NCBI RefSeq assembly: GCF_901000735.1
Contig: NC_081542.1
Span: forward strand, 32,817,871 to 32,881,870
DNA: 64,000 nucleotides
Direction of reading: 5' to 3'
From: Corylus avellana
Taxonomy: Eukaryota; Streptophyta; Magnoliopsida; Fagales; Betulaceae
In this document: positions 5,747 to 64,000 of the stretch, in pieces
Layout: every line of letters starts with the position of its first letter
How positions within the stretch are numbered: position 1 is the first letter of the stretch
Made by a program: the position numbers and the translations under genes
The notes under the pieces: generated by a model
What the model saw: only the letters and a program-made list of their open reading frames with translations
What the model was told of the DNA's origin: nothing
Database searches by the model: none

Positions 5747-6110
5747 TTGTTTGATTTTGTTTCGAATTTTTTTCCCTTAGTTTATTTTTGTTTTAATTTA
5801 GTTTTCTATTTTCTGTTTTTCCGCAGTTACCTTTTTGCCTCCGGAGGTGTGCTCGAGCTCCCATTCCAGGGCGATCGAGCGCACCTGACGATGCAATCGA
5901 TCGCACATCCGGACAGCAGCACGGAAATTGTGTTAATTATTGATCTGATTTATTTATTTTATTTTTGTTTTTATTTTTGTTTTGTTATTTAATTTTCTTT
6001 TTGTTTTAATTATGTTGAGAAACACTACACCTCCGACACGAAGACCTATGAAAAGTTCATTCAGTCCCCAGATCCTGAACCAGCTAACATGCATTAATTT
6101 CTAGCCCATT
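5747..6110 (+). other. E3 leader
   Basis: T-rich untranslated leader between the primer site and gag. It contains GC-rich GATCGAGCGCAC / CGATCGCA motifs at about 5870-5910. A candidate gag start ATG at 6014 opens a frame that stops after about 30 codons, so the original gag N-terminus is probably frameshifted or partly deleted. Confidence 0.6.
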
Positions 6111-7871
6111 GTGCAGAGCAGTTACGATTTATCTCCGCTGCTCAATATGAGTCCACACTATAAATGCACACCTACAGAGAACCCATATTGGCATAGTCGA
6201 GAATTCAGTGATCTCTGCAGGACTCAAAATGTTCAGGGTTTAACTCCAGAAGAAATCAGGTTAATCCTCTTCTCTTTTTCTTTAAAAGATAATGCTAAGA
6301 TATGGTACAATTCTTTGGCCACAGGTTCTATTCATACTTGGGATGAGATGGCCACAAAGTTCTTAAAGAAATTTTTCCCAGCCCAAAAGACAAGGCAATT
6401 GAGAAGGAAAATTATGACTTTCCAGCAAAGAGATGGAGACCTTTTCTTCGAGGCATGGGAACACTTTAATGAGCTACTTCTCAGATGCCCTGATCACCAT
6501 ATATCTCAAGACGATCAGGTATTGGCATTCTATGAGGGTTTAAATGATCCTAACAAGAGTCTTGTAGATTTAGCTTGTGGTTACATGTTGATGGACAAAA
6601 GCGGCGAGGAAGCCATAGAACTCTTTGAGACCTTAAGTGAGAACTCCCAACAATTCCCATTTAAAGGGAGACAAGGACTCAAAGGAAAAGGCATATATGA
6701 AGAGAGCACCAATGGAGGAATTCAGGCTCAAATGACTGCCATGGAGAAAAAGCTGGACATGCTCATGAAAGCTATGACTAATCATAGCAGTGCTCCTGTT
6801 CAACAAGTTACACAAGCCGAGGTACGTGCCATATGTTCCCATATTGACAACACCACTAAGACTTGTCCCATGTTTTCAATTGTGGATCAGGAGTCATCTC
6901 TCATCAAGTTGTCCCAACATTATCATGAAGAGGAGCCATCTCCCATCTATTGGCCTTCACAACACCAAGAAGGGGAGCCATCTCCGCAGTTCCATTGTCA
7001 ATCATACTCCTTTCTTAGCTACAATGAAGCCAATATGCAACTATTGGAATACGTTGCCAAGATAGAAGCTCATGAAGAGGAGCCACCTCTCATCAATTGG
7101 CCTCAACAATACCAAGAAGAAGAGTGTCAAAATTAGTTTGTTGCCAATCCTAATGAACAATACATGGAGGAAGAGTGCACTTACCATCATGAGCAAGCAA
7201 TTACCACATTAAGGAGTGAAGAAGCGGTTGAAAATCAAGGGGAAAAGAGGAAGGAGGAGCAAACGGAGATTCTAGAGGAACCACATATGGAAAAGGAAGA
7301 GAGCACTGAGACTTTTTCAACATCAGCTCCTATTCCTGAATTACCAAGAGTCCAAGAGAGAAGTCATCTGGGGTTATGTGATGAGCAAATTGAGGACATC
7401 AAGATAGAAAAGCTCCATGAGTTTTCTTCTTATTTTATTCTAGTTCATGATTCCCTTTCGGATGAGAAACTATTTGAGAAGACTCAGAATGGTCTACCCC
7501 AATCTACAGACAATTGGAATCCCCCTGCTATAGGAAAAATTTATTCTCTGTGGTGCAAGAGAAGAAAAGATTGGTACTTCAAGTTTAAGAGGAGGACAAT
7601 GGTCTGGAAGACATTAAACTTAGCGCTCATGGGAGACACCCACAACATATCTTTTTTATTTCCTTGTTTGTTTGTTTTTATTTTATTTTTATTTTTATTA
7701 GTTTCCTTTTGTTTCCGTTGTTACTTTAGTGTTTTGTTTTGCAAGGATAAGGGTGCTTTAGTTGAAGTTTGGGGGTGTGCTATGAGCCATGCTATTCTAG
7801 ACAAGTTCGTCCATCTCTCGGGTAAGATACTTTCCATGTTATACACACATTGGGGACAATGTGTAATTTAG
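6111..7871 (+). pseudogene. E3 gag (retrotransposon capsid-like protein), one in-frame stop
   Basis: The first segment (6111-7136) carries a Retrotrans_gag-type core, with WYNSLATGSIHTWDEMATKF followed by FFPAQKTRQLRRKI, then the FEAWEHFNELLLRCPDH helix. It would form the capsid shell that packages element RNA. A TAG at 7134 interrupts the frame, which resumes in phase at 7164 as a Glu/Lys-rich tail. The last roughly 60 codons read through T-rich noncoding-like DNA and are probably not real coding. The first ATG at 6111 may not be the original start. No CCHC knuckle and no protease follow, although sister element E6 has a protease here. Confidence 0.8.
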
Positions 7872-10514: not shown

Positions 10515-11388
10515 ATAGTCATCCTTGAATAGATACAACTTTGGGGAGAGGAATTGGAGGCTACTTCTAGGAGCGGTTTCCGGTTCTTCCTTTCCCTTTT
10601 CTTTTTAGTTATATTTTAATTATGTATAACTAACTCTTAAGGATGACTAGATTGAAGCCCTAATTATGTTTATTTAATATTTCAATATTGGCGCCTTTGT
10701 GATAATCATATTGTGTTACTTAACTTGATTAATTCCTGTTTTCTTGAATTCCTCATATGCATGTGATTGGCCATTATATGCATGTGGTACGGATTAGTTA
10801 ATTAAATCAATTTGAATGAACGAGTCTTGGGTTTAATAAGAGTAACAATAGAAATCTACACTGGATTCTTGGTTTAATCGACATGGAAAACCAGGAGTAT
10901 GCATCCATGCCCTAGGTTCCCCGTGTTTGTCAATTTTCATACATTTATGATTTCTTAAAGAACAACTTAGTATACACCCATGCTAAATCCTTTGAGAAAG
11001 AGAAGAGTTAGAGTATACACCCATACCTAACTTGTTGCATAGGGAAATCAATAGCTTAAGAAGTATACACCCATGCCCTTAGGTTGGCAAACATTAGGTA
11101 TTCATAATATGATTGGATCATTGGCATATTGTTATATTATTTGAGCATGATTAGTGGTGGATATCAAAGTCCTACCTTTACCTTTATCTTTATCTTTATT
11201 TATTTTCCTTAGTATTAATATCAATCTCGTGACAATTTTGATATTTTAATTAATTTTAAATAAAATCAACAATCCTCGTGGGATCGATCTTGTACTTGTT
11301 GCACTATACTATCGTTTGATCTTGTGCACTTGCGAGTAAAACGTATCAAGTATTTGCTTATTAGTTTAGGTGGGTATTTGGCACAACA
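10515..11388 (+). repeat. E2 3' LTR, 3' part (after E3)
   Basis: It resumes the LTR interrupted at 4242 ('gatacaactttggggagagg...') and ends TTTGGCACAACA. Joined lengths of 417 and 874 bases give about 1.29 kb, reasonable for the family. Its four internal motifs read GTATACAC or GTATGCAT where E3 has GTAGACAC. The outer border at 11388 abuts an X-family LTR. Confidence 0.85.
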
Positions 11389-11720
11389 GGCGGACGTACG
11401 GCCACGAGACCAGACGTACGGCCATGAGACGAAACGTACGAGCCTTCTAGCCGGACGTACGGCCACGAGCTCGGACATATGGTCAGAAGTGATTCAGGGA
11501 ACGCCACTTTGGCTAGTCATCTGATAGATTCTGATTTCATGTTCTAGGTTCGTATTTGTTGGATTTAGAACTAATGATAGGTATTTTCTCAGTATTCGAG
11601 GTTATGCTTGAGGAAATTTTACGAAGAAGCCTTACAACCTAGGTGACTATAAACTCACATGGATGCTTGTTGTTACTTTTCCCGCATTGCATGTCTATTA
11701 TATATATATATATATATATA
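11389..11720 (+). repeat. X1: X-family LTR, left part (split by pararetrovirus-like unit)
   Basis: It contains a cluster of CGTACGG motifs (11392-11470). From 'gggaacgccactttggctag' it then follows the intact X4 LTR at about 42630-42850, down to TTTTCCCGCATTGCA. It ends in a (TA)n run at 11700-11720. The LTR resumes at 17738. Its true left end was lost to the E2 insertion. Confidence 0.8.
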
Positions 11721-12147
11721 TCCTTGGATTATGAAATGGCAATATATCCATACAGAAGACAAGATCCAACGACATTGGTATGCCAAATGGTGGGATAAAT
11801 GCTCACTAGTTGACTCCATTGTCATTTCTGTTAAAGAATTGGCTCAAGCCCCAAAGGCTCTTACTTTGCTCTAGAATAAATCCCCTCTCTTAATAACCCC
11901 CAGTACTTTCACCACTTCCCCAACGGAAGAAAAGATTAAACCACCTGATTCTTCTCCCACTACTTCATCTAGTTCTTCAAAGAAGAAAGAAAAGATTAAA
12001 GCTCTCCTTGCTGCTCTTGATGATAATTCTGATGACGATGATGAAGAAGAAAAATTTGAAGCATCGTCTCAAAGTCCTGTTCAGATTCCCCCATATTTTG
12101 AAGATTCACAAGATTATTATCCCTATCTAGGGATAGAAGATTTATAA
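11721..12147 (+). pseudogene. C-terminal end of the viral polyprotein (displaced to the left end)
   Basis: The frame enters from the TA run and shows an aromatic block (WIMKWQY, then WYAKWWDK). A TAG at 11872 follows, then a Ser/Lys-rich and acidic stretch (DDNSDDDDEEEK) ending at TAA 12145-12147. It lies in the same phase (position mod 3 = 1) as the frame that reaches 17737. It has no start codon of its own, so it is read as the tail of that polyprotein separated by circular permutation. Acidic tails occur in caulimovirid capsid precursors, but the function here is unknown. Confidence 0.75.
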
Positions 12148-12148
12148 T

Positions 12149-12335
12149 TGGTCTCATAACGGCTACTTTCTCAGATTTCAGATTGGCTTATAACAGCCTT
12201 TTCTCTCTAGACTTCAAGAATGGCCTCATAACGGCTCTTGGTTCTCAGATTTCAGACTGCCTCCATAACGGCTAATTATTATTCAGATTTGCAGACTGGC
12301 TCATAACGGCTGGTTTCTCCCCTCTTCAAGAATTT
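12149..12335 (+). repeat. Five degenerate 35-39 bp direct repeats upstream of the viral TATA box
   Basis: Copies start at 12149, 12184, 12221, 12258 and 12297. Each carries a TGGCYTCATAACGGCT-like core followed by a T/C-rich stretch with CAGATTTCAGA in most copies. They lie just after the polyprotein stop and about 300-450 bases before the TATA box. They are probably enhancer-type promoter elements. The core ATAACGGC also appears at the TATA box (12599-12606). Confidence 0.75.
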
Positions 12336-12596
12336 TCTCAAAGATTTCTCCAGATTACTATTCATCACTATTTGAAGATTACTGTTCCTACTCACTATTC
12401 ATATTTTGTCTGCTGACACTACAGTGCCGACAGTTACTATTCAAGATTGACAACTTTTACTGTTCCAGATTGGCGCCGACTCTACAGTGCGCATGCTTTA
12501 CTGCTTACTTTTGACTGTGGACTACACAGTACTGCAAAATCTGCTTTTCACTATTTGCTCCATGATTGTATTTTGTTTTATTTCTTGTAAGTTGCC
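12336..12596 (+). promoter_or_regulatory. Upstream part of viral promoter region
   Basis: AT-rich and without a coding frame. It contains repeated 'actattca' and 'gactacacagtactg'-like words between the direct repeats and the TATA box. By position it should be the promoter of the pregenomic-type transcript, but no specific sites can be assigned. Confidence 0.45.
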
Positions 12597-12603
12597 TATA
12601 TAA
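12597..12603 (+). promoter_or_regulatory. TATA box of the viral transcript
   Basis: TATATAA lies in the context 'ttgcctatataacggcacc'. It is the best TATA match in the noncoding region, about 375 bases before the primer-binding site and 760 before the movement-protein ATG. Transcription should start near 12630. This spacing is normal for caulimovirids, whose leaders are several hundred bases long. Confidence 0.65.
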
Positions 12604-12974
12604 CGGCACCCCTCTCCCCATTGTAAGGCAGAAGCTTATTACTGGAGAAGCTTATTACCCATTGCTTCAGAAGCTCTCTACCCTTTTCCCTGCTTTCTTA
12701 TTTCGATTTCTTCTTGTATCTCCTCCTCTTCTATCACTTACTTATGTAAGTCCTATCACTTACTTTTGTAAGATATTTTATCAATATTACTTTCAAGTTT
12801 TGATTTCAACTTCTCAACTAATTTTAATTTCAGTTCTTTAATCTTATTATACTATTGTCATTACCGCTTCATGGCTAGTTTTACTGCTTTGATTTAAATG
12901 TTCTTTTGCATAACTATCATCTTCCCCTACTACCCTGCATTATTTTGCATATTGCGCTTCCTCCCCCTCCGTTT

Positions 12975-12987
12975 TGGTATCAGAGCC
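12975..12987 (+). other. tRNA-Met primer-binding site of the viral unit
   Basis: TGGTATCAGAGCC is complementary to the 3' end of plant initiator tRNA-Met and marks the minus-strand origin in Caulimoviridae. It lies in the leader downstream of the TATA box and upstream of the coding frame, as expected. There is no LTR end before it, which argues against a copia or gypsy origin. Confidence 0.85.
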
Positions 12988-13363
12988 ATAAGAGTTGTGA
13001 TCTCTTTGCTGCCTTGATGTACACCCTGCTCTCTCTTGACCTCCCTGTGTCTCGTCTTGCTTTTGATCTTTCTGAGTATTTACTCCCTGTTGACCTTTCT
13101 CTATGTAGAGCTCCTAGTTGTTAAACGGTAGTCCACCACCCTGTCAGTTCAGTTTGCAAGGTATCTGTAAGTCCAGTTGAAAACCTAGGGTTGGCATGTT
13201 AGGGCGTGAAGAAGGAATTGTGTGTTAGGCCAAGGGTATGTGTGGATAGTTTTGCGTCTAGGAAGGACATGCTTAGGAAGTTTGCCTTGTGAGTGAGTAC
13301 CTAGGATGAGATTCCGTAAGCCGATGCCCAGTGAGTGATTTTGTGTGTAGTTTGTGTATCAAA

Positions 13364-14707
13364 ATGTGGAGATCTAATTCTTCTGTTAGCTCTAGTTCTA
13401 GCTTACCACCTGACGTGGTTAATTTCGAACAATTTTCTGTTGAAGGTGATGATAATTTTAAATTTGATAAATGGAACATCCCCAAGCTTTCTGCTAAAGA
13501 TGTTTACACTACTTTTTGGTTAAAATCTTTTAAAACTGAATATTCTGTCAAAACTGTTGAACAAACATTTGCTATTTCAGGTAATAATCAGACTATTACC
13601 TTGTTTAATAAGAAATTTATTAATGATTCTCTTGCTAAAAGTTACAAATTTCTGTATATTGGTTCTGTTCAAGTTGCAGTCAAGCCTTTGACTCGACTTG
13701 GTATCAATGCTTCTGTTTTGTTATGTTTGCGTGATGCTAGATTTGTTGATTTTCGTACCAACATTCTTAGTATGATTCAGTCTTCTCTGTTTAATAGTCC
13801 TGTTCATTTTGATGTTTTCCCTCATATTTCTCTTGCTTTAAATGATGTTCATATTCTTAAAGCTTTAATTTTGAATATTCTTACTTCTGGTTATAATATG
13901 GAAGAAGGTAGCAGACCTCTTGCTATCATCTACCGTATTTATTATAAATTGATGAAAACAAATCTAGATCCACAAGCTGTGATCAAGAATCCAGGTGAAT
14001 CTACTTTGTTAATTCAAAGTTCTATTCATAATGCTAATATTAAAACTCCGAAAATGATTCGATGGGATGAGATTGACCTCCCCAACGAATGGCTTTTGGA
14101 AAATGTTACAAAACCTTCTCGAGTAGTGAATGATGCCTCTAATCTTGATTACATCCAACAATACCTGGATGGATGTGTTAAAATCAATTTTTCTGATTTA
14201 GGACTTTCAAGTAGAATTGAAAGACCTCTTTTGGTTAACGAACGAAGGAATTCTTTTGTTGGTTCCACAACCACAAAAGGACTTCGAAGTTGTGATAAGG
14301 ATGTGGATGAGTCTCTTAATCCTCCTCCTCTTTATCCTACAGTTAACCCTGATTTGAAACTTAAAGGAATTTCTACTGATTCCCAAGTTTCCTCTGCCTA
14401 TTACTCTACTAGAAATCATCCTCCAACGGATGATGAAGGTGGATCTATTTCTCCTTTTGCTTCTGATTTTAATGCTCCTCTTCCCACTGATCATTCTCAT
14501 CAGTGTAATGTTATTACTGCTCCCATTAAAGATTTCTTTTCTATTATTGATTGGCCAGCTTTGTCCAAGGATTTTAACTCAAAAGAAAATCGTGATTTAC
14601 GGCATGCTTACCATGCCAAATATTTTGAAAAGGAACGAAATCTTATTAAAGTCAAATGGACTGAGATGATGATTGAGTCCCAAAAACATATTTTATTTTT
14701 TGATTAG
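13364..14707 (+). pseudogene. Movement protein domain (30K superfamily) of the viral polyprotein
   Basis: A long frame of about 447 codons. Residues around 60-230 resemble the caulimovirid cell-to-cell movement protein core: a YIGSVQVAVKPLTRLG strand region, LRDARFVDF, then PVHFDVFPHISLALND. Such proteins open plasmodesmata or build tubules. The ATG at 13364 is preferred over the GTG-opened extension at 13331. The rest (about 230-447) is a Ser/Pro-rich linker. The frame ends in TAG at 14705, but the same phase continues to about 14810, so the stop looks like damage and not an authentic terminus. Confidence 0.8.
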
Positions 14708-15082
14708 CTTCAAAAACATTTCCCTGTCGATAATGTTTTGAATGTTGTCAAACAGAATTTTGTTAATGAAGATAAATCTGTTGTTAGATCTTCTCATCCT
14801 CCTCTTGAAATACTCTTCTTGAATGTAATAAAGTTATTGTTAAATGTTCCCCTTTCAAAACCCATGATAAATATCCTATTAATAACGATAGGAAAATTAT
14901 CGAGCAAAATAATTTTGTTAATCAATCTCTTCATATTATAGGACAACAATTAGATCGTATTGAAGAGAAAATTCCCTCTCCCTCTACTGATTTAAGAATT
15001 TCTTCCACTCCTTCTAAGATTGAAAAGCCTCTGATTTCCCTTCCTGATCTAAAGAAATCTTCTGGTTTAAAAACTACTTCTC
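14708..15082 (+). pseudogene. Viral polyprotein linker with one frameshift
   Basis: Coding resumes after the TAG in the movement-protein phase. At about 14810 it shifts by one base to the phase used by all downstream segments. In that second phase 14820-15082 reads a Lys/Asn/Ser-rich stretch with a short predicted coiled coil (IIGQQLDRIEEK). No catalytic motif is visible. A protease domain might be sought here but no D[ST]G triad was found. Confidence 0.6.
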
Positions 15083-15084
15083 AA

Positions 15085-16335
15085 ATGAACCTTGAGAAAG
15101 TAGACCAATTACTTTCTGAGTTAAAAACTACTCGTGCCAGTACTTCTGGACAGAATTTTGCTATTGAAAAAGCTTCCTCTTCTGATTCTGAAATTTCTCA
15201 TGATTCTACTGATTCTGATATTAAGATTCTTGAAGAAAACTTTGGCAAGATTGACTTGGAGCCAAAACTCCAAAGGATCTTTGACGGATCCAGATCTTTC
15301 AATCCCACAAAGAATTTTTATCCAAAACCTACTCCTCCTGATTTACAATTTGAAGAAAGATTTCTCCAATCTCAATTTTCTGTTTCTGCTGATAAATTGT
15401 ATGAATGGAATATTGATGGTTTGTCTGAGCAAGAACTGCTTAATAAGATGAATCATATGTCTATGGTTGCTAATGCCTATCTTACTAATCACAATAAAAG
15501 CCAAGCTGATATTGTGGATTTACTTGCTACTGGATTCTCTGGTACTCTTAGAAATTGGTGGGATAATTATCTCGCTGAATAGACAAGAAACCAGATCAGG
15601 ACAGCAGTAAAGTGTAATGAAGACGGCGAACCCATTCTTAACGAAAATATGGGTGAACCTGATGGTGTTAATACTTTGATTTATACCATTATCAAAAATT
15701 TTGTTGGTACTCCTTCTAATATTACTTCTCGTATTTCTGATTATTTGAATAATCTTCGATGCCCTACTATGTCTGACTATAGATGGTATCAAGATGTTTT
15801 TCTTACTCGTGTTATGGTTAGACCTGACAGTCAAAAACCTTATTGGAAAGAAAACTTTATTGATGGATTGCCTTCATTATTTGCTCACAAAGTGAAAGAT
15901 GAATTGATTAATTCTAATACTGGTCTCATTGATTACGAAAACTTGACTTATGGAGACTTATTCTCTACTGTCAAGAAACTTGGTATTAAAATGTGTATTG
16001 ATCAGAAGATGATCAGACAACAGTTAAAGAACGCCAAGAAAGCTAAGTATGAAATGGGAAATTTTTGTGAACAGTTCGGATTGCCTCCTATTGCTCCCTC
16101 TCATAAGCATAGGAAGAAATCTGGCAAGGTTTTCATGAAATCACCCACTCCATATTACAATAGTCATAAGAAAAGAAAATTTAATAAACCTAACAAGAAT
16201 TTTTCAAAAAATCCTAAAAAGAATAACGATTCTAAATTTGAAAAATATTTTTCGAAAAATAAATGTTTCAATTGTGGAGAAACAGGACACTATGCTGACA
16301 CGTGCCCTAAACCTCCCAAAAAGATTAAAAAATAG
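15085..16335 (+). pseudogene. Capsid-like region with CCHC zinc knuckle
   Basis: Two in-phase pieces (15085-15582, 15649-16335) are separated by TAG at 15580. The first has an acidic Ser-rich lead, then a helical segment with W and WWDN motifs (LYEWNIDGLSEQ, LRNWWDNYL). The second continues the helical core (YRWYQDVFLTRV, YWKENFIDGLP) and ends in a Lys/Asn-rich basic region with one knuckle CFNCGETGHYADTC (CX2CX4HX4C, 16264-16305). This is the layout of caulimovirid coat protein and of gag. It would encapsidate the viral DNA and bind its RNA. The TAG at 16333 is followed by coding in the same phase. Confidence 0.78.
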
Positions 16336-17737
16336 ATTAATGCTTTAGACATTGATGAAAACAATAAAGAAATTTTTTTTAGAATTTTTCAAAACAATGA
16401 TTTTTCTGACTTTTCATCTGATAATGATTTTCTATCTTCAACTGATTCTGATTATCACTCTGCTTCCGAGATTTCTGAAAATTGTATTAAATTTGGTTGT
16501 GCTGATTCTTGATGCAATACAAAAACTTGTTCAGTTCTGACTAAATCAGAAGAACAAGAAGATTTACTTACTTTGATTTCAAAAATTGAAAACCCTGATT
16601 TGAAAGAAGAATATCTTAAAAAACTTAAAAAACTTATGGTAAAAGATTTTGAAAAACTTGTTAGCACTAAAATCTCTTTTGAGGATACTTTGAAACGATT
16701 TTCAAAACAAAAATCCAAAGTGGTTACTATCTCAGAGTTGCAGCATGAGATTAGTAACATCAAGAAAGATATTGTTAACTTGCAAAGTGACTAGCATATT
16801 GTAAAAACTGAGAACAAAGACTTACAACAAAAGCTTTTGCTTTTAAGTCTTAAAGAATGTTTTCTAGAAAATGTTTCTAATAATGAAAATGATAAAAAAA
16901 TTGAGCATGATGATGAAGCTAAATCCAGCTATAATCCTCTTTCTAAAAAGATTGATTCTAAGGCTCTGGCCCTGAAACCAGAGTCTACTGTTGCTACTTC
17001 CCTACCTATTTCTTCTATTGCTATTACCAACAAATTTTCTCCCTTCAACCCTGGTTCCCAAGTTTCTTATTCAAGTACCCTTGCTTCTCCTTATGATCCC
17101 TTTGCTGATAATTCCCAAAGACCTCGAGCTACTTTCATTAGGTATGATAAGACGTCTGCCTATGTGACTCTTACTTATTCCCAGAATTTGTCTTTCATTG
17201 AAATGAATCGATCATCTTCTTCTAAATCTCCAGGAGATATTGCCCTCTCCTATTTTCTTCCTAATTTCCATTGGATTCCTGAACATCCTCAAAAGAATTT
17301 AGCATATTATTCTAGTATTTTACGTCAAACTGATTCCTTCTTTTTTAAGACTATTTTTTGCAAAATTAATCCTCAGAAATTACTTTTCCATAGTGTCTAT
17401 TTTAAAAGAATTATTTCTGAAAAAGAATGGGGTGACCATCCCTCTGCTCCAAAATCCCTTAACGGATTCAACATTCCTTTTACGTATTATGATTATATTG
17501 AAGCCTGGTTTAAGTTTATGCTTTACCAAACCTCGAATTTTGATCATTCTTGGTTTATTAATTTTAATAAAAATTTCTGCGGAATTCTCCCTCTCTGGTT
17601 CTCCAGATGGTGGATGCAATTTGGCATTCTTCCTGAAATTCTCCCTCTCAAATTAATTGAAGCTTTCTAGAATTTTAAGGTTACTTACAAAGTTGATGCT
17701 TATGGTTCCAAGTTTCCCCCCATGCTACACTTTGTCA
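16336..17737 (+). pseudogene. Viral polyprotein C-terminal region (coiled coil plus aromatic-rich domain)
   Basis: This region is in the same phase throughout, broken by TGA 16510, TAG 16792 and TAG 17668. Around 16573-16860 it is Lys/Glu-rich with heptad-like leucines, a likely coiled coil. From about 17100 it turns aromatic: SYFLPNFHWIPEHP, FTYYDYIEAWFKFMLY, WFSRWWMQFGILPEILP. The frame runs into the (TA)n at 17738 and is completed by the piece at 11721. No YxDD reverse transcriptase motif, RNase H motif or protease triad is present. I recall plant-genome proteins joining MP, CCHC and such a domain, but cannot name the family with confidence. Confidence 0.65.
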
Positions 17738-18825
17738 ATATATATATATATATATCAAACATGCATATTTTTCAACTCTCTTGAAATACATTTTAGAACT
17801 ACAATGAACTCTCTTTTGTGAAAACGTGTGTTGATTAATAAGATAACAATGAGGCTTGTAAAACTATGCATGTAAAAGACTGATAAGATTAATTGTATCG
17901 TATGACATGGTACACTGGTACGTGCGGGATAACGGCCATGGGCTTACTATACATATTAACTTTATTGTCAAATGTGTGTGTGTGGGCTTCGATCCAATGG
18001 TTTCATGACCAAGGCGCATCCATTCCCTAATGGATGGTCTCTATAGGATGGACATCATTAGTGGTGTGGGCCACCCGAGGTCGGACTCGGTCATGCCACT
18101 AATGGGATGGACGGTAGCGTACAATATCCGGGGCATCAATGTTGTATTACAGGTCACTTGGGACAGCGCCAACCTTGCTGAGAAGGGGTAATATCTCGGG
18201 TAGACTATACGGTTAAACTATTACTGTTACTCATAATTATATGCATATATTATATCTATATCACATCCATGATAAACTGTCATCTCATAATGTTGCATGT
18301 GCTTTATAAACAACTGAGTTCACCACTTAATGACGGGTACGTTATATGCTTTTATACTTACTAAGTCATTGGACTTACCCTTGTATTATTTCCCTTTTTT
18401 CTCTATATGTAAAACTATGCGGTTATAGATAGTTTAGCAGAAGATCGATACCGTAAAGCTTCTGGTTATTGTGGAAGATTTGATCTAGGAGATGCTTGAG
18501 GACTTACAACGAGCTTAAGTGGGTGCTCATGGTAATTAGTACGTTACGTTATGTTGTAGACTTAGAGCTTTTACGCATGTCTGCATGTTAAGGTATAGCA
18601 TGAATCCCTTTCAAAGTTGATGATATGTATAGTATTTCAACTACTTTGATGTTCCTTGGTAGATGCTCTAGTTGTAATGATTAATGTTTATAGAATCTTT
18701 TTGTTTCTGCTGTTTAGTATCCTCTGTTTTGACGAGTAGAGGTCCCTGAGTCTTGTTCCGTGAGGGAAAGGCTGGGAGACGAATCATGGAATTAATTACC
18801 AGTTAATTAATTTTCGAGGTGTCAT
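17738..18825 (+). repeat. X1: X-family LTR, right part
   Basis: It restarts in (TA)n and follows X4 from about 42852 onward: CAAACATGCATATTTT, CATGGGCTTACTATACAT, GGGCCACCCGAGGTCGGAC, then the TAAGTC-ATTG-GACTTA hairpin at 18362-18377. It ends near GAGGTGTCATA. Together with 11389-11720 it reconstructs one LTR interrupted by the viral unit. Confidence 0.8.
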
Positions 18826-22286: not shown

Positions 22287-23139
22287 GTCATCTTTCCCTT
22301 CCTATGTTGAAGCATCAAGTCCCGAGCCTTCGTCATGAGTTGTCCGTGTCTTGCAAAGGTTGTCAACTTAGTAAGCACCGTCGTGTTTCTTTTCGTCAAG
22401 AGTTGTTAGTCGGGTATCCCATCCTTTTGAGTTAGTTCATTCTGATGTATGGGGCCCTTTGAATATCGCATCCAATAAATTTCATTATTTTGTGACCTTT
22501 ATGGATGATTTTTCTCGTATGACTCAGTTATTTTCAATGAAAAATCGTTCAAAATTATTTTTTGTCTTCCAAATTTTTCGTAGTATGATTAAGACTCAAT
22601 TTACTAAAAAAATCCGTATTTTGATTTCTGTTAATGCCAAATCTAGTTCTTTTGCCTCTTATTTGTCTGATAAAGGCATTATCCATCAAACATCGTGTGC
22701 TCACACACCACAACAAAATGGTGTGGTTGAACGCAAGAATCGTCATTTATTAGATGATGCATGGTGTCTCTTATTTCATATGCATGTCCCCAAACATTTT
22801 TGGAGTGACGTTGTTCTCACTACTTGTTATCTCATTAATCAGATACCCTCCTCAGTCTTAGATGGTGCTTCTCCTCATTCTCTCTCTTATACTCTTCTTC
22901 ACTTCCGTTTCCCTTACCACTAAAGGATTTTTGGGTGTGTTTGCTATGTTCATAATTTGGGTCCTGGTTTTAATAAACTTGATCCTTGTTCTATTAAATG
23001 TGTCTTCCTTGGTTATTCCACAACTCAGAAGGGATATGTTCTTCGCCACTACTTCACTAGCGCCGATGTCACATTTGTTGAGTCTCTTTCCTATTTTCCT
23101 ATTAATGCATATTTTGATGCACCTCCATGCTATGCCTAT
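22287..23139 (+). pseudogene. Ty1/copia integrase fragment
   Basis: It opens with a GAG-pre-integrase remnant (in one phase PSLPMLKHQ, then CKGCQLSKHRR). The integrase core follows after a phase change: ELVHSDVWGPL, FVTFMDDFSR, and the C-terminal part of the DDE fold HTPQQNGVVERKNRHLLD. After a stop at 22921 the same phase reads the integrase C-terminal module (CSIKCVFLGYSTTQKGY). It would insert element cDNA into the genome if intact. Gag, protease, RT and RNase H are missing. It ends where a copia LTR begins. Confidence 0.85.
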
Positions 23140-23635: not shown

Positions 23636-23647
23636 TGGTATCAGAGC
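23636..23647 (+). other. Copia A tRNA-Met primer-binding site
   Basis: TGGTATCAGAGC lies three bases after the LTR end. This is the normal copia arrangement and supports reading 23140-23633 as a 5' LTR. Confidence 0.85.
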
Positions 23648-62231: not shown

Positions 62232-63734
62232 TCAATGTAAGTCCAAGTCCCGAAGGATCTTACCTCGATCCTTCAGAAGTCCAATCAAGCTCTTCCATCC
62301 CTTATTCTTTATGATCATGTAGCACTCCACAAGGAAGAGGATTCCTCTTAACATCCCGAAACTGCTTCTCTCAACTAATAGGTCTTGATGCTCCCCATGA
62401 TGATGTTCAGGGTGTTTGTTCCGAACTGGTTTCATGATCAATCTCTTGTCTATAGGGAATTTGCCAAAAAAAATTTCTACCCCAATGAAATCCACTTCAG
62501 CAACCTTTGAATGAAATATGTTCCCTGTGGGGTTGTCATCAGGTGGTGGAGTACTTGAATTGAGAGGCATAGGCTTCGGTGGGTTGCTCCATGATGGAAC
62601 TTCAAATAGAGGATCAGGAGGTGGGTCTTCAACAGTTTCTCCAATGTCATCCAAGAAGAAACATGCATTCTGGAAGGCATTGAAGATGTTCAAAATCTTC
62701 ATATTCCCAAAAGAGATCTTCATTACTCCGGTCCGGCAATTGATGCATGCATTGGCTATGGCGAGGAAAGGACACCCAAGGATGACTGGAATTTGCTTCT
62801 CTGGATTTAAGACCGGTTCTATGTCCAGAACTATAAAGTCAACTGGATAGTAGAACTTGTCCACCTTGATAATGACATCTTCCACAATCCCACGAGGTTT
62901 CTTGATCGAGCGGTCAGCCAATTGAAAGATAGTACTTGTCGGTTTCAATTCCCCTAAGCCCAGTTTCTGATATACTGAGTATGGAAGCAGATTAACACCA
63001 GCTCCTAAGTCGAGGAGAGCTCTCTCAATTTCAGTGTTTCCGATGACGCACGAAATTGTAGGCGCTCCAGGGTCTTTGAACTTTGGAGGAGTGTTATGCT
63101 GAATCAGAGAGCTTACTTGCTCGGTGAGAATGACCTTCTTGGGAATGTGCTTCTGATTCTTCCTCTTTTGAGTGCACAAGTCCTTGAGAAATTTTGCATA
63201 GGCTGGAATTTGCTTGATGGTCTGAAGGAGTGGGATGTTGATTTGAACCTGCTTCAAGGTTTCCATCATGTCTTGTATCTTCTCTCCTTGTTTCCCGAAG
63301 TGGGAGGGTGCCTTGAGACGTTCTCGGAAGGGGGCCTTAGGCTCATATGATACCTTAGGAGTGGGGGTAGATGATGAAGATGCCTCGATGCTTACTTGTT
63401 TACCCTTGTCTTGATGCAGATTCTGTGGGGCCTTAATTTGCGTATCCTTCTTTTCTTCCACATGATTGTCAACCAGTCTGCCGCTTCGCAATGTGGTGAC
63501 GGCTTGAACTTGCTCCAGATGAGGCGTGCTTTCTTCTACCATGTATAGTCCCCTAGGGTTGGTCACTGGCTGACTTGGAAGCTTTCCTTCATCCCTCCTA
63601 TTGAGAGCATTGGCAAGTTGTTCGACTTGAGCTTCTAGCTTGGCAATGGATTGGGAATGTGAGTTGACTAATTCCTCTTGAGATTTGACTGACTGCTTTA
63701 TCTCGCTCGTCAGCTCACTCATTGCTTTTAGCAT
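62232..63734 (-). CDS. E6: gag tail plus aspartic protease, RT absent
   Basis: This is the longest open frame of the window, 500 codons from ATG 63734; upstream gag sequence continues in other phases to the window edge. Residues 1-60 look coiled-coil. Residues 120-200 hold the KDLCTQKRKNQKHIPKK segment. Residues 225-350 are an aspartic protease with ALLDLGAGVNLLPYSVY (Asp242), and a conserved PVILGCPFLA. The protease would cut the gag-pol precursor. After it the frame goes straight to a tail (CYMIIKNKGWKSLIGLLKDRG) similar to the end of the E5 frame, so RT, RNase H and integrase are deleted in frame. The absence of stops suggests a young or constrained copy. Confidence 0.82.
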   Translation of the reverse strand: MLKAMSELTSEIKQSVKSQEELVNSHSQSIAKLEAQVEQLANALNRRDEGKLPSQPVTNPRGLYMVEESTPHLEQVQAVTTLRSGRLVDNHVEEKKDTQIKAPQNLHQDKGKQVSIEASSSSTPTPKVSYEPKAPFRERLKAPSHFGKQGEKIQDMMETLKQVQINIPLLQTIKQIPAYAKFLKDLCTQKRKNQKHIPKKVILTEQVSSLIQHNTPPKFKDPGAPTISCVIGNTEIERALLDLGAGVNLLPYSVYQKLGLGELKPTSTIFQLADRSIKKPRGIVEDVIIKVDKFYYPVDFIVLDIEPVLNPEKQIPVILGCPFLAIANACINCRTGVMKISFGNMKILNIFNAFQNACFFLDDIGETVEDPPPDPLFEVPSWSNPPKPMPLNSSTPPPDDNPTGNIFHSKVAEVDFIGVEIFFGKFPIDKRLIMKPVRNKHPEHHHGEHQDLLVERSSFGMLRGILFLVECYMIIKNKGWKSLIGLLKDRGKILRDLDLH

Positions 63735-64000
63735 TCGCTCCTCAAAATTAGACTCTGAGGGGGGTGGTGCGGCCTGGTATTGCTGCTATGGAGGCTGGTA
63801 AGTGGAATGAGGTTGGAGGCCAGGATGGGTTGCCCGCATTTGAGTTCTTCCATGAGAAATTTGGATGATTTCTCCACCCGGGGTTGTAAGTATTGGAATA
63901 TGGATCATTACCCGGTCGGGAGAAAGCTGCATTAACCTACTCATTACCAACATTAGTAAAATCTCCAGCAAGATGGCAGTTATTTACAAGATGCATAGAA
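63735..64000 (-). pseudogene. E6: gag knuckle/aromatic segment (continues beyond the window)
   Basis: Antisense frames read NDPYSNTYNPGWRNHPNFSW followed by KNSNAG and NPSWPP, the usual Athila gag segment between knuckle and protease, in a phase different from the main frame. One or more frameshifts or stops lie between (near 63790). The gag core is outside the window. Confidence 0.6.

What the first reader, a model, noticed from the sequence alone, without database searches (positions are those of the whole stretch)
11721..17737. A complete-looking pararetrovirus-like circle with movement and capsid genes but no polymerase
The C-terminal coding piece sits at the left end and the rest of the frame at the right end, in the same phase. 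Between them lies one full noncoding region with repeats, TATA box and tRNA-Met primer site. This is what a 6.0 kb circle opened inside its gene would give, so nothing large need be missing, yet there is no RT, RNase H or protease. Bipartite genomes have been reported for some endogenous florendoviruses; an MP/CP-only component or dependent satellite is the simplest reading. A deletion derivative is the main alternative.
Basis: partly seen in the sequence, partly recalled or inferred. Interest (0 to 1): 0.92.

Follow-up and report, generated by a model that had tools for sequence, protein, structure and literature searches.

The report
Half of a two-part hazel pararetrovirus
This stretch of the hazel genome is a fossil copy of one half of a plant virus whose genes seem to have been split over two DNA circles: the half without the copying enzyme, whose enzyme-bearing partner is also present in many copies in the same genome.

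Summary
Window 11721-17737 is one permuted pararetrovirus circle between two (TA)n tracts. In the 19 of 43 ORF2 relatives that cover both ends, exactly 5 residues separate them, so about 15 nt are lost there. It has promoter, tRNA-Met site, leader hairpin, MP, CP with zinc knuckle and an ORF2 homologue; no protease, RT or RNase H.

B units: MP, full CP, protease, ORF2-B, no RT. A units: MP, truncated CP, protease, RT, RNase H, ORF2-A. In 25 fetched stretches plus the window, 13 units have the CP C-terminal part, 9 have RT, none both; one further locus, L034, is ambiguous. A and B separate cleanly in protease and ORF2 trees but mix over promoter, leader, MP and the start of CP. B genes show purifying selection. 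So the RT-less state is an inherited viral component, as in the bipartite florendoviruses of Geering et al. 2014.

Correction: the missing protease is not typical. It is a 0.64-0.74 kb deletion seen only in this copy among 65 matches. New host, new evidence, known kind.

The parts
11699..11720 (.). (TA)n tract at the left end of the insertion
   Evidence: over 34 unit ends in 25 loci plus window, 19 lie within 40 nt of (TA)>=5 against 3.1% of 3533 random points
11722..12147 (+). C-terminal part of the ORF2-B homologue; one premature stop at 11872, natural stop at 12145
12150..15330 (+). Common block shared by components A and B (promoter, leader, MP, N-terminal CP); limits approximate
   Evidence: left edge, right edge, mixing
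12138..12319 (+). Repeats with the motif CATAACGGCT upstream of the TATA box
   Evidence: family D2, 3 copies
12597..12604 (+). TATATAAC, likely TATA box
   Evidence: read; function inferred
12898..13017 (+). Short upstream ORF (39 codons) whose stop overlaps the base of the leader hairpin
12975..12988 (+). tRNA-Met primer-binding site TGGTATCAGAGCCA
   Evidence: exact
13014..13362 (+). Rod-like leader hairpin ending just before the MP start codon
   Evidence: 114 of 118 pairs on one unbranched path, reached by 0 of 150 whole shuffles and 0 of 150 half-wise shuffles; total energy is not better than shuffles
13364..14704 (+). Movement protein (MP) region with DUF7588
   Evidence: omega 0.29 over 29 copies, 406 pairs
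14705..15582 (+). N-terminal coat-protein region (DUF7746); A units keep about the first 590-690 nt
15583..16335 (+). C-terminal coat domain and CCHC zinc knuckle; in 13 B units, absent from the 9 RT-bearing units fetched
   Evidence: omega 0.20 over 13 copies
16336..16944 (+). Linker after the zinc knuckle; in relatives followed by the protease
   Evidence: best Castanea match 61% over 77 residues
16944..16945 (+). Junction of the 641-737 nt deletion that removed the protease; private to this copy among the matches listed
16945..17737 (+). N-terminal part of the ORF2-B homologue, here fused in frame to the linker
   Evidence: omega 0.18 over 12 copies
17738..17754 (.). (TA)n tract at the right end of the insertion

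Best explanation
The feature is an endogenous copy of component B (the RT-less DNA circle) of a bipartite florendovirus-like pararetrovirus of hazel. Shown: two unit types with complementary genes, a common block (promoter, leader, primer site, MP, start of CP) that A and B share without any A/B difference, and private halves that diverged long ago. Inferred: both circles were transcribed from the same promoter into terminally redundant RNA; A supplied reverse transcriptase and RNase H in trans, B supplied the complete coat protein with zinc knuckle; both RNAs carried the same leader and primer site, so both were packaged and copied; template switching between co-packaged RNAs kept the common block alike. 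One B circle, already shortened by a deletion of the protease stretch, was opened inside ORF2 and captured at a (TA)n tract by break repair, losing about 15 nt; it then decayed.
For: A and B units: (13 units with CP C-terminal part, 9 with RT, 0 with both, in 25 stretches plus window). Genome-wide positions: of 40 MP copies listed, 16 have a listed CP copy downstream, 10 a listed RT copy, 0 both, 14 neither. 25 linker copies pair with an ORF2 copy at 643 nt (1), 710-749 nt (23) or 1762 nt (1), so B is a defined structure with no room for RT. Protease and ORF2 trees split A from B with one change (0 of 1000 label shuffles), A-B identity 0.77 and 0.59 against 0.84-0.88 within; MP 0.91 A-A, A-B and B-B alike, tree labels 10 changes against 8.0 expected by shuffling, also mixed for start of CP (8 against 6.9) and leader (4 against 5.6). 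A/B difference ends at the ORF2 stop. Compound insertions L027, L030, L031 hold A-linked and B-linked MP copies that are sisters in the MP tree (support 0.94, 0.99, 1.0). L009 runs ORF2-A, promoter, leader, MP, CP, ORF2-B in one block. Purifying selection on B's own genes. Same layout as component A/B in PMC4241990 (passages).
Against: No episomal virus is known here; everything is inferred from decayed copies. L034, a lower-identity locus (MP 80%), has a protease-RT fragment directly upstream of leader-MP-CP on one strand with ORF2 and promoter missing; it may be a rearranged A-B compound or the remnant of an undivided genome. Search lists were capped (40 candidates scored of 300, 220, 226 and 292), so an undivided virus at lower identity is not excluded. 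14 of 40 MP copies stay unclassified. The window copy itself lacks the protease that B units carry.
Confidence: 0.8

Rival explanations
1. B is a satellite or defective genome amplified by an undivided helper florendovirus, with no mutual dependence; the A units are likewise defective.
For: Deleted circular DNAs made by reverse transcription of spliced RNA are packaged in caulimoviruses (PMC4498817, passages). Geering et al. could not discount a helper (PMC4241990). Extra deletions are common: L009 first unit, L030 first unit and the window each lack parts of CP or protease at different places. L034 could be a helper remnant.
Against: B keeps CP, protease and ORF2 under purifying selection (omega 0.20, 0.33, 0.18), and A, which lacks the CP C-terminal part, keeps protease and RT (0.18, 0.17). 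No unit with full CP and RT downstream of MP was found or in the capped lists.
Confidence: 0.15
2. The RT-less state of the window is just a deletion suffered by this one copy.
For: True for the protease stretch: in 64 other matches none crosses the junction.
Against: All B units fetched lack RT with the same protease tail and RNase H remnant before ORF2 in 11 rows aligned, at loci with different flanks and permutations.
Confidence: 0.03
3. The A/B mixing over MP and leader came from gene conversion between integrated copies in the host genome, not from recombination between replicating circles.
For: The sister pairs L027, L030 and L031 lie side by side, where conversion is easy.
Against: Dispersed A and B copies on different chromosomes are as close as any (window B to L010 A 94.8%), and mixing covers the common block in general.
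Confidence: 0.1

Closest known systems
Component B of bipartite florendoviruses (Vitis vinifera B and D virus, Oryza sativa B virus, Sorghum bicolor virus; PMC4241990, passages read)
   Same: 5.5-6.9 kb units, RT and N-terminal RNase H missing, MP and CP (and protease) kept, ORF2 homologue present, intergenic region and MP nearly the same in A and B, compound A-B insertions, (TA)n insertion sites
   Different: New host (hazel). In other hazel B copies ORF2 has its own start in another frame rather than being a C-terminal extension; the window copy is fused only through its private deletion and has no protease. PMC9719215 reports that in VvinDV component B only MP and zinc finger were detected, so a protease-poor B has a precedent
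Component A of the same viruses
   Same: CP partly or wholly deleted, protease-RT-RNase H-ORF2 kept
   Different: Hazel A units keep MP and about the first 590-690 nt of the CP region in 8 of 9; L011 loses the end of MP, all CP and the start of the protease region
Deletion genomes of cauliflower mosaic and figwort mosaic virus made by reverse transcription of spliced RNA (PMC4498817, passages)
   Same: Shortened circles with intact replication signals, packaged by a helper
   Different: Those are by-products of a complete virus; here both unit types are long-lived separate lineages with selected genes
Common region of bipartite begomoviruses (recalled)
   Same: A shared block kept alike between two circles while the rest differs
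   Different: Here the block is about 3.2 kb and contains a whole gene; the virus is a reverse-transcribing one

Membership tests
Caulimoviridae | 30K-type movement protein | tested here: met
   PF01107 E 2.2e-14
Caulimoviridae | Coat protein with CCHC zinc knuckle | tested here: met
   PF22909 E 8.3e-9, PF00098 E 2.3e-6
Caulimoviridae | tRNA-Met primer site | tested here: met
   exact 14-mer at 12975; 0 of 100 shuffles reached the 4 window matches at up to 2 mismatches
Caulimoviridae | Long leader hairpin with a short ORF ending at its base | tested here: met
   rod shape beyond shuffles, energy not (72 of 100, 112 of 150 and 74 of 150 shuffles fold as well); the stop overlaps the stem base instead of lying in front of it
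Caulimoviridae | Protease, RT and RNase H in the same genome | tested here: not met
   absent from the window unit; present in A units
Genus Florendovirus (tentative) | RT falls in the florendovirus clade | not testable with these tools
   no named florendovirus sequence was available; the window has no RT
Genus Florendovirus (tentative) | Second ORF of 45-58 kDa after RNase H with no Pfam relative | tested here: met
   ORF2 relatives P0003 (449 aa) and P0009 (418 aa) are of that size; P0003 has no Pfam match, P0007 (410 aa) only a sub-threshold one; RNase H tail before ORF2 in A units. Homology to a named florendovirus ORF2 not tested
Genus Florendovirus (tentative) | Preference for (TA)n insertion sites | tested here: met
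   19 of 34 unit ends against 3.1% background
Bipartite florendovirus, component B | MP and CP present, RT absent, ORF2 homologue downstream, in many independent copies | tested here: met
Bipartite florendovirus, component B | Partner with RT sharing intergenic region (>90%) and MP (>87%) | tested here: met
   MP: best A copy 94.8% to the window, all 150 A-B pairs 87.6-97.8%. Leader next to MP: mean A-B 0.90, up to 0.967; promoter plus 5' leader lower, mean A-B 0.75, at most 0.875, where the stretch includes some ORF2 end
Bipartite florendovirus, component B | Protease domain present | tested here: not met
   private deletion in this copy; met by its sister copies
LTR retrotransposon | Long terminal repeats and integrase | tested here: not met
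   no direct repeat framing the unit; no integrase match

The most novel reading that the evidence does not exclude
The two components do not stem from one recent split. Their ORF2 genes separated before hazel's virus parted from relatives in other plants: hazel ORF2-A groups with four unnamed proteins (P0027, P0029, P0031, P0035; support 1.0) and hazel ORF2-B with the others. The virus would then be an old partnership of two lineages, held together by constant recombination over a 3.2 kb common block that includes the movement gene: concerted evolution of a segmented reverse-transcribing virus, spread beyond one host.
Probability: 0.3. Interest if true: 0.75.

Novelty: new member of a known kind. 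Interest (0 to 1): 0.55.

Why it matters
Divided genomes are said to be unique to florendoviruses among viral retroelements and were inferred from consensus sequences in Vitis, Oryza and Sorghum (PMC4241990), with Beta added in a review (PMC10377300, passages). Hazel adds a host and a sharper test. A dead deletion product should show no selection and need not keep a lineage of its own; here B has its own protease and ORF2 lineage, selected genes, and a promoter-leader-MP block mixed freely with that of the RT-bearing partner, with edges at the ORF2 stop and at the CP truncation. That pattern can be looked for in any plant genome.

Tried and rejected
Viral contigs and prokaryote genome contigs: candidate stretches but no relative. 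Rfam: no match in 11500-18000. PHROGs: none for MP. PDB by sequence for an ORF2 profile: only two hits at E 0.3. Structure prediction of ORF2 was not available. Leader folding energy is not exceptional (z +2.4 and +0.5); only the rod shape is.

A splicing origin of the RT deletion was considered, because Lithocarpus and Castanea gene models join the linker to an ORF2-like tail (P0172, P0175, P0176, P0178). Those models join at differing places and probably hold predicted introns, so I do not use them; P0167 (linker, protease, start of RT, ORF2) may be a Castanea component B or a predicted intron.

Rows left out: four MP rows of unknown type (L013 twice, L017, L019) were dropped from the label tests; two of ten ORF2-A rows (L013, L019) were labelled by the ORF2 type itself, and L031's A-linked MP by the ORF2-A upstream of it; L025's B label rests on its long CP and a neighbouring inverted ORF2-B. 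In one search some 'ends' are edges of rearranged blocks. L009 and L023 overlap and share one unit. Only 26 stretches of 10 kb or less were obtained, so 15 or so listed MP places were classified by position alone.
Full report
What was checked. The window stretch carries MP, CP, zinc knuckle and an ORF2-like end, but no protease, RT or RNase H. The ORF2 relatives found cover both ends of the unit. In the 19 of 43 that passed the thresholds for both ends, the right end stops and the left end starts with exactly 5 residues between. So the unit is a single circle opened inside ORF2, with about 15 nt lost. (TA)n tracts stand at both ends. The frame is broken by seven premature stops and one frame change.

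What lies around the gap. In relatives from Castanea, Lithocarpus and Carya the linker after the zinc knuckle leads into the protease and on towards RT (P0164, P0179, P0182). In unnamed contigs the end of RNase H runs into the start of ORF2 (P0029, P0031; recognised by eye, Pfam finds nothing there). A block with protease, RT and RNase H therefore belongs between 16944 and 16945 in an undivided virus.

The genome. G000 has 369.9 Mb in 12 contigs; its contig C6 has the length (30,273,198) of the contig of P0045, a Corylus avellana protein. The MP piece has 40 listed matches at 85-100%, the window itself among them (300 candidates, 40 scored). I fetched 25 stretches of 10 kb around them and one more.

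Two unit types. Mapping pieces on the 25 stretches and the window gives 13 units with the C-terminal CP part (window, two in L009 of which one is shared with L023, L012, L015, L016, L018, L022, L027, L029, L031, L032, L033) and 9 units with RT (L010, L011, L020, L021, L024, L026, L027, L028, L030); none has both. RT-bearing units have CP cut short and, where the stretch reaches far enough, a different ORF2. L031 also holds RNase H with ORF2-A. By positions alone, of 40 MP copies 16 have a listed CP copy downstream, 10 a listed RT copy, none both and 14 neither; 0 of 40 CP copies has a listed RT 0.5-4 kb downstream on the same strand. All lists are capped at 40 scored candidates. Estimated sizes are 6.70 kb for B (L012) and 6.46 kb for A (L020), adding window lengths for the parts not reached. 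One locus stays unclear: L034 (MP 80%) has a protease-RT fragment, then leader, MP and CP on the same strand, with ORF2 and promoter missing; it may be a rearranged compound or a remnant of an undivided genome.

B is a defined structure. In 11 aligned rows B units end ORF1 with a tail after the protease, then keep a remnant of the RNase H end, then start ORF2 in another frame. Genome-wide, 25 linker copies pair with an ORF2 copy on the same strand within 5 kb; the spacing is 643 nt once, 710-749 nt in 23 and 1762 nt once; 9 linker copies are unpaired. The window alone crosses that spot without a gap: none of 64 other matches does. Against 10 sister copies 641-737 nt are missing. The missing protease is thus this copy's own loss. 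Whether it happened in the replicating virus or after capture cannot be told; the resulting fusion of linker and ORF2 is in frame, a one-in-three chance.

Common block and private halves. In trees and identities, protease and ORF2 split A from B (1 change each, 0 of 1000 label shuffles; A-B identity 0.77 and 0.59, within-type 0.84-0.88). MP, start of CP and the leader end show no separation (10, 8 and 4 changes, shuffles average 8.0, 6.9 and 5.6; A-B identity 0.91, 0.89, 0.90, as within types). Along the noncoding region the A/B difference ends at the ORF2 stop, near 12127-12210; on the other side it returns near 15280-15380, where A's CP is cut. Compound insertions L027, L030 and L031 hold A-linked and B-linked MP copies that are each other's sisters. 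L009 holds ORF2-A, promoter, leader and a B-type MP-CP-ORF2-B run in one block. This is what recombination between two co-replicating circles would leave. Gene conversion in the host is the rival.

Selection. Pairwise omega over copies: MP 0.29 (29 copies), CP C-terminal part 0.20 (13), B protease 0.33 (10), A protease 0.18 (8), RT 0.17 (7), ORF2-B 0.18 (12). Decay after capture pushes these up, so the constraint during replication was stronger. Genes found only in B were therefore in use.

How it likely worked. Both circles carry the same promoter, leader hairpin (13014-13362; 114 of 118 pairs in one rod, 0 of 150 shuffles in either control, though its energy is ordinary), primer site and MP. 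PMC5902531 (passages) describes such a hairpin with a short ORF ending before it in a peach florendovirus and proposes ribosome shunting; here the short ORF (12898-13017) ends at the stem base. A would give RT and RNase H, B the full coat protein; sharing of leader and primer site would let both RNAs be packaged and copied. These steps are inferred.

Against what is known. PMC4241990 (passages) describes components A and B with this division, compound insertions and (TA)n sites; PMC9719215 (passages) notes a component B in which only MP and zinc finger were detected. I found no report for hazel: of 12 papers listed of 119 none shows a hit for Corylus avellana, one search gave no florendovirus paper, and finds in PMC9794742 and PMC13308828 gave no Corylus. 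Supplements were not searched. Membership in Florendovirus by RT tree could not be tested.

Deeper history. An ORF2 protein tree of 55 sequences puts hazel ORF2-A with four unnamed proteins and hazel ORF2-B with the rest. The A/B split would then predate the hazel virus. Some unnamed B-type ORF2 proteins seem to follow an RNase H tail (P0006, P0010, P0022), which may mean undivided relatives elsewhere. This is open.

Noticed in passing
L009:1-7142: One block runs ORF2-A, promoter, leader, MP, CP, ORF2-B: an A/B chimera or a longer-than-unit copy, ending at a (TA)n tract.
   Followed up: partly
L034:4330-8500: Protease-RT fragment directly upstream of leader-MP-CP of a lower-identity relative; may be a remnant of an undivided virus.
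   Followed up: partly
B units, e.g. L016:1264-1460: A tail of roughly 60 codons after the protease, open in most of the 11 B rows, then a stop; no match to the A units' RT DNA beyond the protease end. Origin unknown.
   Followed up: no
P0167 (Castanea dentata, 896 aa): Gene model joins linker, protease, start of RT and an ORF2-type end: a possible component B in chestnut, or a predicted intron.
   Followed up: partly
window 11388-11485: Three imperfect 37-nt direct repeats (ACGTACGGCCACGAG type) just upstream of the insertion.
   Followed up: no
window 62232-63785 (-), 22375-22923 (+), 6105-7136 (+): Open stretches that look like retrotransposon gag/protease and integrase remains (by eye); tRNA-Met-like sites at 23636 and 56721.
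   Followed up: no
L018:4466-7137: The end of MP and start of CP stand three times in tandem within one B unit.
   Followed up: no
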